Positions 33,419 through 35,633 of a DNA stretch of 64,000 bases are shown one piece after another (the first letter of the stretch is position 1; every line of letters starts with the position of its first letter). A model generated the notes under the pieces. That model saw only the letters and a list, made by a program, of their open reading frames with translations. It was not told the DNA's origin and did no database searches. Position numbers and translations under genes: made by a program. Source of the DNA: Pseudomonas frederiksbergensis (lineage in GTDB: Bacteria > Pseudomonadota > Gammaproteobacteria > Pseudomonadales > Pseudomonadaceae); assembly GCF_003732275.1 (NCBI RefSeq), contig NZ_MOBM01000015.1, forward strand, positions 111,862 to 175,861. Direction: 5' to 3'.

Positions 33419-34495
33419 ATGGTCAAAAAAATAATACGCCATGCAGCGAACGGGATCAGAACGATGGAGGAGGGTGATGAGGTCGGCGCCAAGGCGTCGA
33501 TGACAACGCTGCAAGCGTTCAATCTTTGCGTATTGCACTTGGGGCGTCTTGCCCGAGATCGCGGTGCGTCCCGGTTCATCACTGACGGCTTGAAGGCATT
33601 CAGCCAACTGGTGCCCTTCGCTTCAGCCTGGTGGGGCGAGATGTCTGCGTCGGGTGTCGATGTTTCGCCCAGAAACTGGATGCATGGGCGAATCAATCTG
33701 CCCGAGTCGTTTGCCGCCGAGTGGCACACGTGTGCGCGCAATGACAAATTCTCCCATGACACCATGAGTCGACCCGGTGAGGTCGTGCGCGACAGCGGCT
33801 TCACCGATCCCAATGAAGAAGTGAACGCTTTCGCTCGGCGCCACGACCTCTATTACCTGATGTGCATCACCTTCGAGTTACCCGAAAGCGGTTTGATGTT
33901 CTTCGTCTGTCTCTATCGAGACATTAATGCCTCAGCTTTCAACGACAACGAGGCCGATTTGTTTTCGGCCTTCTGCGACCACCTGTTGCAGCTGTGGCGA
34001 TTCCAGGTGCAGGACATGATCCGCTTCGACACGGGCAATGGGGCGTCTGACTTTGGCGTCGCGCGCATGGACGGCAGCTTGCTGTACGTGGGGGCAACGC
34101 TGTGTGCAGCCATCGAACGTGAGTTACCCGGCTGGAACGGTTCAATGCTTCCCGCGCAGGTGACCGCGCAACTGCAAAAGGCACCCTGCGTCATGCGCCT
34201 GGGTCGCTGCGCCCTGACACTGAGCCCAAACGCCGAGCACGTTATCCTGTCGCTCGAAGCCCAGTCACGCGGGGCGATGCTTGCGCCACGCGAGCGGACG
34301 GCTGCCATGCTGTTCGCCGCCGGCCATTCCTACAAGGAAATTGCCAAAATCCTGGAGTTGAGTCCTGCGACAGTGCGCACCTACCTGCGCAACTGCTACC
34401 TGCAACTGGGCGTGAAGAGCAAAGTGGAACTGGGGTCTGTGCTGCGTTCAGCGAACTCGCACGCGAAGAACGATAACGCGGTGTGCCAGACCTGA
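33419..34495 (+). CDS. LuxR-family (helix-turn-helix) transcriptional regulator
   Basis: Up to 358 residues with a C-terminal LuxR/GerE HTH: MLFAAGHSYKEIAKILELSP then ATVRTYLRNCYLQLGVKSKVE (about residues 296-340). The upstream 270 residues show no receiver aspartate or autoinducer-domain signature that I recognise. The start is uncertain: in-frame ATG codons at 33419, 33464 and 33500 all lack a clear ribosome-binding site. No adjacent synthase was seen, so it is an orphan regulator. Confidence 0.75.
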   Translation: MVKKIIRHAANGIRTMEEGDEVGAKASMTTLQAFNLCVLHLGRLARDRGASRFITDGLKAFSQLVPFASAWWGEMSASGVDVSPRNWMHGRINLPESFAAEWHTCARNDKFSHDTMSRPGEVVRDSGFTDPNEEVNAFARRHDLYYLMCITFELPESGLMFFVCLYRDINASAFNDNEADLFSAFCDHLLQLWRFQVQDMIRFDTGNGASDFGVARMDGSLLYVGATLCAAIERELPGWNGSMLPAQVTAQLQKAPCVMRLGRCALTLSPNAEHVILSLEAQSRGAMLAPRERTAAMLFAAGHSYKEIAKILELSPATVRTYLRNCYLQLGVKSKVELGSVLRSANSHAKNDNAVCQT

Positions 34496-34513
34496 CGCCT
34501 TCGCGGGCAAGCC

Positions 34514-34671
34514 TTAATGCCAGTCAGTTAAGTATTTGAACACTGCAGTCCTTGTGGGAGCGAGCCTGCTCGCGATAGCGTCGGGTCAGCCGATATTGAT
34601 GCTGAATGTACCGCCGTCATCGCGAGCAGGCTCGCTCCCACACGTTGCGCACCTTAACTGACTGGCATTAG
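34514..34671. repeat. Family A REPIN inside a 19-bp terminal inverted repeat
   Basis: An inward-facing family A doublet (34552-34641) is flanked by TTAATGCCAGTCAGTTAAG (34514-34532) and CTTAACTGACTGGCATTAG (34653-34671), complementary in 18 of 19 bases. The same flank surrounds a family B doublet at 42570-42738. Confidence 0.8.
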
Positions 34672-34710
34672 GGCAAGCCTCACTCCTACAGGGGAATGGA
34701 GTTCACATTT

Positions 34711-35070
34711 CTAAGGGGTATCGATTTTATCCAGCACCCGGTTCGCCGTGATCTCCGCCACCATGATGCTGTTGGAAATGCCCAGCAGGGCGTAGCGCGA
34801 CTCACCCTCCAGATGATCCACCAACTGATGGACCATCACATCGACCGACGCCAGCGTCTCGACCAAAAAAACCGCCAGGGTTTCGGCTGTGGCTTCTGGG
34901 TCCACGGAAAACATAGTGCTGGGTGTACGCGCAGTGGCTTTGATGTCGGCATTCGACGGGAAGTGGAAGTCGAGGGCGCGTTTGGCGGCATCGTTGAGTT
35001 TTTTTGAATCGAGAGATTCGTAGGGGGACGCCGGGTCTGTGACCGGCGGGTTGGGCGTTGCCTTGAACAT
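34711..35070 (-). CDS. DUF6124-type Pseudomonas protein
   Basis: A 119-residue protein, MFKATPNPPVTDPASPYESL, of a Pseudomonas-restricted family (DUF6124/DUF3077-like; name from memory). The C-terminal half (ETLAVFLVETLASVDVMVHQ then LEGESRYALLGISNSIMVAEI) is predicted all-helical. The N-terminal part is Pro/Ser-rich. No function is known. AGAGG lies 9 bases before the ATG. An unusually structured leader region lies directly upstream. Confidence 0.75.
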   Translation of the reverse strand: MFKATPNPPVTDPASPYESLDSKKLNDAAKRALDFHFPSNADIKATARTPSTMFSVDPEATAETLAVFLVETLASVDVMVHQLVDHLEGESRYALLGISNSIMVAEITANRVLDKIDTP

Positions 35071-35119
35071 GGGGACTAACCTCTAGTGAGGCCGCAACCA
35101 TCTCGCTGCTATACGAAAG

Positions 35120-35290
35120 GGTGGCAGCTGTGCGCAAGTTAGCAGACCGGTAGTCACCCAAAACCCGGCGCACCCGAAGGTGCCATGCGCACAGCCACCA
35201 TCAAGTGCAGGCGAAAGCCTGACTGGATAAGACATGTGCAACCGTGAGTGACTAGCCGGGCTGCTAAACCCGATCACTGGGAATCAGTGA
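35120..35290 (-). ncRNA. Candidate structured leader RNA of the DUF6124-type gene
   Basis: Read 5' to 3' on the minus strand: a hairpin (TCACTG/CAGTGA, 35290-35274), segment A (35269-35248), a hairpin CAGGC/GCCTG (35221-35208), segment B (35199-35186), a hairpin with a cTTCGg tetraloop (35184-35168), segment A' (35157-35138) and segment B' (35136-35120). A pairs with A' and B with B', so the pairings interleave. That implies a pseudoknot or two alternative folds, ending about 50 bases before the start codon. Transcription is not demonstrated; it could also be a mobile palindromic element. Confidence 0.5.
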
Positions 35291-35633
35291 CGCGAATCAA
35301 GTTACCGGCGGGGCTCAAAGCGCACAAGCCGGCGGATTCTGGTGCAGCCGTAGGCAGCGGCGCAAGGTTTTGTAGCTTTCAGGACGTAACCTTGAGGTCT
35401 TTTAAACAAGCCTCTTCGATCAATGTTGACTGTGCCGCCGTCTTCGCGAGCAAGCCCGCTCCCACAGGTTCCGCCTCTACTCCAGATCGGATCCCTGTCA
35501 TTTAATTACCTCACCCCCCTCATTTGTAGAGGTCCATCCGACGCCTGCGCCCTATAGGGTATGCCTGCATATCAGAGGCTTGCGGCCGTCTGTTCGGGCC
35601 ACTTCCAAAACTATAAAAATAGAGGTGAGGCAG
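35291..35633. other. Non-coding stretch with a truncated REPIN
   Basis: No gene recognised. A single right-hand family A half (GCGAGCAAGCCCGCTCCCAC, with the usual ATCAATGTTGAC lead-in) lies at 35419-35467; its left partner is missing. The remainder must include the promoter of the amidohydrolase operon. Confidence 0.6.

What the first reader, a model, noticed from the sequence alone, without database searches (positions are those of the whole stretch)
35120..35290. Leader of the DUF6124-type gene with interleaved complementary segments (A-B-A'-B')
Seen: on the minus strand GTTTAGCAGCCCGGCTAGTC.. (35269-35248) is nearly complementary to GTGACTACCGGTCTGCTAAC (35157-35138), and GGTGGCTGTGCGCA (35199-35186) to TGCGCACAGCTGCCACC (35136-35120). 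The order is A, B, A', B', so both helices can form only as a pseudoknot, or they exclude each other. Three extra local hairpins are present, one with a cTTCGg loop. The last element ends about 50 bases before the start codon. Inference: this may be a regulatory RNA switch, a sensor for the DUF6124 product, or a mobile structured element that travels with the gene. I know of no described class with this layout.
Basis: partly seen in the sequence, partly recalled or inferred. Interest (0 to 1): 0.72.

Follow-up and report, generated by a model that had tools for sequence, protein, structure and literature searches.

The report
Chromosomal C4 antisense-RNA leader, many copies
This leader is a bacterial-chromosome version of the C4 antisense RNA that helps keep phage P1 dormant; this Pseudomonas-type genome carries about 38 such units, each with its own lock-and-key pairing code, and related strains can differ by a whole code at the same gene.

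Summary
The interleaved leader is real but not an unknown class. It is a C4 antisense RNA (Rfam RF01695, 75.3 bits, gathering 45) preceded by its a1/b1 target (RF03163, below its gathering score). A second target, a2/b2, follows C4 and reaches the ribosome-binding site of the DUF6124 gene: the order annotated in phage P1 immI. Likely mechanism: C4 is released from the leader and blocks DUF6124 translation. New here: this genome has 38 distinct units (26 before DUF6124, 2 before Bro-N antirepressor-type genes, 10 before other small genes). Arms and own targets covary (z -9 to -15; wrong combinations near 0), repeated in a second genome and across species, though non-self targets often pair as well. 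C4 is in 138 of 149 same-genus genomes sampled (median at least 13 copies) and 24 of 369 same-class genomes. At three or four of seven syntenic sites the whole lock-and-key module differs between strains while flanks and gene stay roughly 80-97% identical. No transcript was measured; DUF6124's function is unknown; purpose is inferred.

The parts
35299..35327 (-). Candidate promoter TTGTGC-17-TAACTT, just before the a1 5' hairpin
   Evidence: Read from the sequence by eye; similar words at the same place in other own-genome loci, by eye. The automatic sigma-70 scan found none, so weakly supported.
35273..35291 (-). 5' hairpin GTCACTG/CAGTGAT of c4-a1b1
   Evidence: Part of RF03163 match 35253-35304, 29.5 bits, below gathering 46.7, E 3.3e-5 in 1.1 kb
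35257..35272 (-). a1 hairpin; a1 core TTAGCAG 35267-35261, complementary to a'
   Evidence: 7 nt contiguous Watson-Crick with a'; a'-a1 covaries over 37 paralogues, z -14.8
35248..35254 (-). b1 core TAGTCAC, complementary to b'
   Evidence: 7 nt Watson-Crick, 10 with G-U; b'-b1 z -13.3
35117..35205 (-). C4 antisense RNA (RF01695)
   Evidence: 75.3 bits, gathering 45; R1 model finds C4 in 78 of 80 DUF6124 loci of other Pseudomonas genomes
35184..35200 (-).
   Evidence: Alignment; stem covariation
35122..35138 (-).
   Evidence: Alignment; stem covariation
35170..35183 (-). C4 hairpin with TTCG loop
   Evidence: all 5 pairs of this helix have changes on both sides among 38 paralogues
35151..35157 (-). 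b' antisense segment GTGACTA in the second C4 loop
   Evidence: Covaries with b1 and b2, with b2
   Evidence: Covaries with a1 and a2, with a2
35106..35111 (-). a2 target TAGCAG just after C4
   Evidence: 6 nt Watson-Crick with a'; a'-a2 z -9.3
35074..35084 (-). Shine-Dalgarno AGAGG with b2 target TTAGTC
   Evidence: 5 nt Watson-Crick, 7 with G-U (weaker than the 37-locus medians 7 and 9); b'-b2 z -11.7
34711..35070 (-). DUF6124 gene (PF19619), 119 aa, the controlled gene
   Evidence: 66.8 bits, cut-off 27; purifying selection in 16 relative pairs
34553..34642 (.). REP pair (REPIN-like) downstream of the unit
   Evidence: Inverted repeats; the name REP is recalled; not part of the regulator, possible recombination partner
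35419..35466 (.). REP element upstream of the unit, inverted relative to 34553-34600
   Evidence: 77% complementary arms, 818 nt apart

Best explanation
The leader is a C4-type antisense control unit. One transcript carries targets a1/b1, the C4 RNA, targets a2/b2 and the DUF6124 gene. C4 is released from the leader (in P1 by processing; recalled), and its a' and b' segments pair with a2 and b2, covering the ribosome-binding site and keeping DUF6124 off. a1/b1 can capture the same arm in the nascent transcript, which would prevent C4 folding or release and so tune repression. Each of about 38 units in this genome has its own a/b code, so a unit mainly silences itself and equal or similar codes elsewhere in the cell. 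Shown: family membership, layout, stem covariation, locus-specific arm-target covariation, strain differences by whole module. Inferred: transcription, processing, repression, the role of a1/b1, the degree of separation between codes.
For: Rfam C4 and c4-a1b1 matches. The P1 record annotates a1, b1, C4, a2, b2, icd, ant1 in the same order, and model R1, built from this genome, finds P1 C4 at 48.4 bits. 37 own-genome loci: a'-a1 z -14.8, a'-a2 -9.3, b'-b1 -13.3, b'-b2 -11.7; wrong combinations a'-b2 0.7, b'-a1 -0.3, a'-b1 0.7, b'-a2 -0.4. Second genome, 29 loci: whole arm upstream -13.4, downstream -10.7, a'-a2 -7.4, b'-b2 -11.7; controls -0.2, 0.2, -1.1, 0.4. 54 distinct arms from other genomes: -19.4, -14.3, -9.9, -16.6; controls 1.2, -0.3. 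C4 stems covary. Two units precede Bro-N proteins; the one tested against PHROGs is of the antirepressor type. Where the leader differs between strains at one site, b1, b' and b2 differ together.
Against: No RNA data. The a1/b1 match of this locus is below Rfam's gathering score, and its b2 pairing is weaker than typical. Self is often not the single best partner: whole arm 24 of 38 upstream and 9 of 38 downstream; parts 20, 4, 16 and 10 of 37; 13, 8, 0 and 10 of 29; 20, 11, 3 and 15 of 54. With G-U pairs allowed, 347 of 1332 non-self combinations also reach 6 nt at both a2 and b2. At syntenic sites some foreign targets score as well as self, e.g. L250, L215, L227. No operator or inducer was identified. 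Relatedness among paralogues inflates the z-scores, although wrong combinations stay near zero.
Confidence: 0.83

Rival explanations
1. IsrK-like activation: the short a1/b1 RNA, made by early termination or processing, acts in trans as an anti-antisense that frees the gene's ribosome-binding site, so a1/b1 is a positive signal and not merely a local decoy.
For: [quoted passage not shown] Rfam isrK overlaps our a1/b1 region weakly (20.3 bits, gathering 50, E 0.079).
Against: isrK match far below its cut-off. The terminator scan gives no site between a1/b1 and C4; its one minus-strand site lies inside C4 and is at chance level (1 found, 1.1 expected). Compatible with C4 repression rather than replacing it.
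Confidence: 0.2
2. The unit is a type I toxin-antitoxin-like pair: DUF6124 is harmful when made and C4 is its antisense antitoxin.
For: Small conserved protein under antisense control in many distinct copies; purifying selection.
Against: No PADLOC hit, no fold match with E <= 0.001; the 119-aa model is a three-helix protein, unlike the short membrane peptides typical of type I toxins (recalled).
Confidence: 0.15
3. A ligand-sensing riboswitch or a sensor of the DUF6124 product.
For: Alternative folds exist in the leader.
Against: The antisense loops vary between loci together with their partners, the opposite of a conserved ligand pocket.
Confidence: 0.03
4. A decaying phage remnant with no present function.
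For: C4 systems are known from phages, and IMG/VR contigs carry the unit, in L339 between tail-fibre-assembly and tail-sheath genes and in L349 before a tail-sheath gene. One own-genome DUF6124 copy (L071) has a disrupted frame.
Against: dN/dS 0.06-0.45 in 16 pairs; compensatory changes in stems and in arm-target pairs; 78 of 80 DUF6124 loci keep C4.
Confidence: 0.05

Closest known systems
C4 antisense RNA of phages P1 and P7 (immI; Rfam RF01695)
   Same: Order a1-b1-C4-a2-b2-gene, C4 fold, hairpin with TTCG loop, two antisense segments, b2 near the translation start (P1 seen, P7 recalled).
   Different: Chromosomal, controls DUF6124 rather than icd-ant, present as about 38 distinct units in one genome, and the specificity module differs as a block between strains. 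Distance from b1 to C4 is shorter (42 nt here, 66 nt in P1).
c4-a1b1 (Rfam RF03163)
   Same: Two adjacent hairpins upstream of C4 carrying a1 and b1.
   Different: This locus scores 29.5 bits, below gathering 46.7; 15 of the 44 matches with E <= 1 in this genome pass it, and at that loose threshold 9 of 14 control genomes also give (sub-cut-off) matches.
IsrK of Gifsy-1 (Rfam RF01394)
   Same: RNA upstream of an antirepressor operon that base-pairs with its own leader region (PMC4825925, passages).
   Different: IsrK activates; the Rfam match here is weak and below cut-off.
Type I toxin-antitoxin families with several paralogous antisense pairs
   Same: Works like them in having several locus-specific antisense pairs per genome (recalled).
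   Different: The antisense RNA lies in the same strand's leader, not on the opposite strand; no toxin shown.

Membership tests
C4 antisense RNA (RF01695) | Covariance-model score above gathering | tested here: met
   75.3 bits against 45
C4 antisense RNA (RF01695) | Two antisense segments complementary to targets a2/b2 at the downstream gene's translation start | tested here: met
   a2 6 nt, b2 5 nt (7 with G-U) for the window; covariation z -9.3 and -11.7 over 37 loci
C4 antisense RNA (RF01695) | C4 and target gene on one transcript, same orientation | tested here: inconclusive
   A gene of one of four families follows on the same strand in 38 of 38 distinct loci; transcript not measured
C4 antisense RNA (RF01695) | C4 is processed to a short RNA and represses translation (known for P1; recalled) | not testable with these tools
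   Needs RNA and reporter assays
C4 antisense RNA (RF01695) | Controls an antirepressor operon (icd-ant) in P1/P7 | tested here: not met
   DUF6124 here; 2 of 38 own-genome units precede Bro-N genes. Not a defining feature of the Rfam RNA family
c4-a1b1 (RF03163) | Score above gathering | tested here: not met
   29.5 bits against 46.7, E 3.3e-5 in 1.1 kb
c4-a1b1 (RF03163) | Hairpin pair upstream of C4 with segments complementary to C4 | tested here: met
   a1 7 nt, b1 7 nt; covariation z -14.8 and -13.3
isrK (RF01394) | Score above gathering | tested here: not met
   20.3 bits against 50

The most novel reading that the evidence does not exclude
Pseudomonas genomes keep a large repertoire of largely distinct C4 lock-and-key units. 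Recombination swaps the whole a1-b1-C4-a2-b2 module at a fixed locus, so a gene changes its silencing code without changing itself. Because C4 acts in trans, the resident repertoire would silence any incoming unit (for example a prophage-borne one) that carries a code already present: a repertoire-based RNA immunity among mobile small genes.
Probability: 0.25. Interest if true: 0.82.

Novelty: new variant of a known kind. Interest (0 to 1): 0.6.

Why it matters
C4 is a textbook phage immunity RNA from P1 and P7. Here it is a genus-wide, mostly chromosomal family with tens of copies per genome. That gives a natural set of antisense pairs for measuring how base-pairing specificity stays separate within one cell, a visible route (exchange of the module) by which such codes may change, and a handle on DUF6124, DUF3077 and an unnamed family, all of unknown function, that hold 36 of the 38 positions behind C4 in this genome.

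Tried and rejected
Distant homology between DUF6124, DUF3077 and the unnamed 8-member family was looked for by profile comparison and not supported (probabilities 9.8, 0.2 and 1.1). Fold search of the DUF6124 model gave no match with E <= 0.001 in PDB or viral structures; the model has mean pLDDT 76.6 and pTM 0.48, so little can be read from it. A defence-system label was not supported (three proteins). Avoidance of equal codes within one genome was tested: 0 of 50 same-genome pairs share a b' loop exactly against 1.21 expected, P 0.29, so inconclusive. Against strict separation: G005 has one identical tandem pair (L168/L169) and four further pairs within two edits, the own genome one pair within two edits. 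The immunity idea has no direct support: the single Bro-N protein used as query found nothing in viral contigs (close relatives only), and some DUF6124 viral-contig hits lie at contig ends and may be host DNA. The sigma-70 scan found no promoter. The direction of the exchange at the window's site is unknown.

Rows dropped: own-genome L049, L061, L066, L070 (copies on the palindromic contig C1); L065 (no Rfam a1/b1 match; its a1/b1 is visible by eye); L169 (identical tandem copy); eight loci before (L238, L268, L277, L271, L270, L254, L264, L265: no C4 close to the gene, or gene start not at the match start). One search used 54 distinct arms of 78 loci. In one search the L082 b2 stretch was one base out of register, and the L079 protein carried one extra leading residue. 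L082 is below the C4 gathering score (36.3 bits) and is counted among the 38. L083-L085 were fetched and not analysed.

Full report
What was reported. The segments are present at the stated positions. The B/B' pair is also returned by the repeat finder (35122-35136 with 35186-35200). None of 200 shuffles of the 237-nt leader folds as stably (z -4.29). Its minimum-energy fold uses A-A' and gives up the C4 closing stem, so the two folds compete.

What it is. Rfam finds one RNA in the whole 64-kb window above a gathering score: C4 antisense RNA, 35117-35205 minus, 75.3 bits. With a relaxed threshold the c4-a1b1 motif appears just upstream at 35253-35304, 29.5 bits, below its gathering score of 46.7. 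B/B' is the C4 closing stem, A' the antisense arm inside C4 and A the a1/b1 target. The GenBank record of phage P1 annotates a1, b1, C4, a2, b2, icd and ant1 in this order, with the note that C4 binding at a2 and b2 represses icd-ant translation. The P1 letters show the same logic (a1 and a2 TTGACAG, b1 GTTAGTGC, b2 GTTAGTGA). C4 stems in 38 paralogues covary: 94.4% of 1025 cells paired, 14 of 27 pairs changed on both sides, 0 of 500 shuffles as high on any of five measures.

How many. The window's genome has 42 C4 matches, 41 over cut-off, with 150 of 1909 candidates scored, so this is a lower bound. Contig C1 is a palindrome by its match coordinates (each of four pairs of mirrored matches sums to the contig length plus one), which duplicates four units; 38 are distinct, 37 of them over cut-off. 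The genes behind the 38 fall into four groups: 26 DUF6124, 8 of an unnamed family, 2 DUF3077 and 2 Bro-N. The Bro-N protein tested (L043) matches PHROG antirepressor families, as expected for a C4-ant arrangement. None of 14 control genomes has it. A tblastn with the window's DUF6124 protein gave 1 of 50,697 phage records and none of 72,556 plasmids. In IMG/VR, 99 stretches encode relatives of the DUF6124 alignment and 80 were kept; 73 of those 80 hold a C4 at E <= 1e-5, and three of the other seven (L294, L304, L358) are cut off close to the gene. In some of the 73 the C4 is not directly before DUF6124. I looked at two contigs: in L339 the unit lies between a tail-fibre-assembly and a tail-sheath gene; L349 has the tail-sheath gene at the same place and a similar upstream gene by eye. 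So prophages can carry the unit.

Locus-specific codes. If C4 works by pairing with its own targets, arms and targets must change together between paralogues. I folded each arm segment against each target segment of every locus (37 of 38 loci). Self pairs exceed non-self pairs for a'-a1, a'-a2, b'-b1 and b'-b2 (z -14.8, -9.3, -13.3, -11.7), while the wrong combinations a'-b2, b'-a1, a'-b1 and b'-a2 give 0.7, -0.3, 0.7 and -0.4. A second, single-contig genome (29 of 30 loci fetched, out of 42 matches, 39 over cut-off) gives -13.4 and -10.7 for the whole arm, -7.4 and -11.7 for a'-a2 and b'-b2, controls between -1.1 and 0.4. 54 distinct arms from 78 loci of 48 named genomes agree. Against full separation: self is the single best target in only 20, 4, 16 and 10 of 37, 13, 8, 0 and 10 of 29, and 20, 11, 3 and 15 of 54. 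With Watson-Crick pairs only, at least 6 nt at both a2 and b2 is reached by 24 of 37 self and 8 of 1332 non-self combinations; with G-U allowed it is 35 of 37 against 347 of 1332, so cross-talk is possible. All 37 b' loops differ. The z-scores treat loci as independent, which they are not; the wrong-combination controls carry the same relatedness.

Exchange of the module. Of 80 DUF6124 loci in named Pseudomonas genomes, 78 have a C4 (L238 and L268 do not; in L277 it lies about 650 nt upstream of the match). The window's own site is shared by Pseudomonas sp. A-RE-19 (L203) and Irchel s3b2 (L221). Against L221 the flanks are 86-99% identical per 100 nt, mostly 94 or more; the gene's 3' part (34700-34899) 94-97%; but the stretch 35000-35299, from the a1 hairpin to the first codons, falls to 66-75%, whereas against L203 it is 97-99% (34500-34699 aligns poorly in both). 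The L221 leader is closest to L208 (89.7%) and L159 (89.4%), whose flanks have no match over 400 nt to those of L221, while its gene end is closest to L203 and the window. The b1, b' and b2 segments differ together: window C4 binds its own b2 at -16.0 and that of L221 at -11.9; L221 C4 binds its own at -16.6 and the window's at -9.0 kcal/mol. A search of 73 loci gave 34 syntenic pairs, which I group into 7 sites. Leader identity is 75% or less in 22 and 82% or more in 12, with flank means of 67-96%, mostly 83 or more. In L253 against L256 the last 200 nt before the start codon are 56-57% identical, while the other 100-nt windows within 1 kb are 75-97% and the gene's are 93-96%. In L252 against L253 the promoter and 5' hairpin window is 100%, then 52-59% up to the ATG, then 91, 80 and 94% in the gene (their downstream flanks align only further out). 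So the exchanged piece is about a1 to b2, the whole lock-and-key. Pairs at one site are not independent; I read clear exchange at three to four of seven sites. At these sites self is usually but not always the best target (exceptions such as L250, L215 and L227).

The unit as a whole also moves. In G021 (L118) the matches to the LuxR-type gene and to the amidohydrolase side lie 48 nt apart with no unit between them, and Rfam finds no C4 in L117-L119. In Irchel 3A7 (L257) the unit sits at the same site but inverted relative to its neighbours. REP elements flank the window's unit as inverted repeats (34553-34600 and 35419-35466), which would allow such an inversion; this last step is inference.

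The protein. DUF6124 is under purifying selection (dN/dS 0.06-0.45 in 16 pairs that I chose). The AlphaFold model is three helices with low global confidence and matches nothing firmly. Its function is unknown. No paper in the held library holds the word DUF6124; DUF3077 with Pseudomonas gives one, in which a P. putida DUF3077 gene annotated as a pseudogene was among the mutated genes of furfural-tolerant strains (PMC9630843, one passage).

Mechanism and literature. In P1, C4 is a processed 77-nt antisense RNA (title in a reference list; further details recalled; the paper itself is not held). PMC8546580 (passage) calls it a trans-acting RNA that represses Ant synthesis; PMC8201110 (passages) describes the C4-ant region of P1vir. 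PMC2864571 (passages) lists c4 antisense RNA in Proteobacteria and phages and c4-a1b1 in Gammaproteobacteria and phages. PMC4666395 (passages) used the C4 family for a blind structure prediction and describes it as found in phages. PMC4825925 (passages) is the IsrK paper. I found nothing on amplification, code diversity or module exchange of C4 in Pseudomonas in searches; other papers listed there were seen as listings only, the library lacks most subscription papers, and supplementary files could not be read, so this is not proof of absence.

Verdict. As to mechanism the leader is a well-formed C4 unit. What is unusual is the scale, the distinct codes within one genome and the exchange of whole codes at fixed genes. 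These are shown by sequence; the regulatory effect and its purpose are inferred.

Noticed in passing
window 34506-34679: A 27-nt inverted repeat (34506-34532 / 34653-34679) encloses a REP pair (34553-34642), like a small insertion next to the unit; 34456-34514 has close matches in other loci such as L218, L214 and L254.
   Followed up: partly
G000 contig C1 (1,421,354 bases): C4 and DUF6124 matches are mirrored about the contig centre, so the contig looks like an inverted duplication, probably an assembly artefact; contamination is listed as 9.64.
   Followed up: partly
L168, L169 and G005:C1:3630531: Three C4 units stand in tandem about 850 nt apart in G005; the first two are identical in their b' loop.
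   Followed up: no
L316, L332, L350, L351 and others: Several IMG/VR loci hold two or three C4 matches within about 1.2 kb upstream of a DUF6124 gene.
   Followed up: no
L041 and L082: A short reading frame lies between b2 and the DUF3077 or Bro-N gene, like icd before ant in P1; translational coupling is possible.
   Followed up: no
L071 (G000 contig C11, about 22.4-22.9 kb): The DUF6124 gene behind this C4 is split over two frames.
   Followed up: no
window 35321-35342: The stretch CCAGAATCCGCCGGCTTGTGCG around the -35 position is shared, with small changes, by at least 10 of 38 own-genome units by eye; a common operator is possible.
   Followed up: no
G000:C25:115968-116020 and C25:225730-225782 (L083, L084): Two own-genome DUF6124 genes have an a1/b1 match upstream but no C4 among the scored candidates.
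   Followed up: no
G000:C17:38805-38990, L238, L268: DUF6124 genes for which no C4 was found upstream; the first is on the window's contig but outside the window.
   Followed up: no
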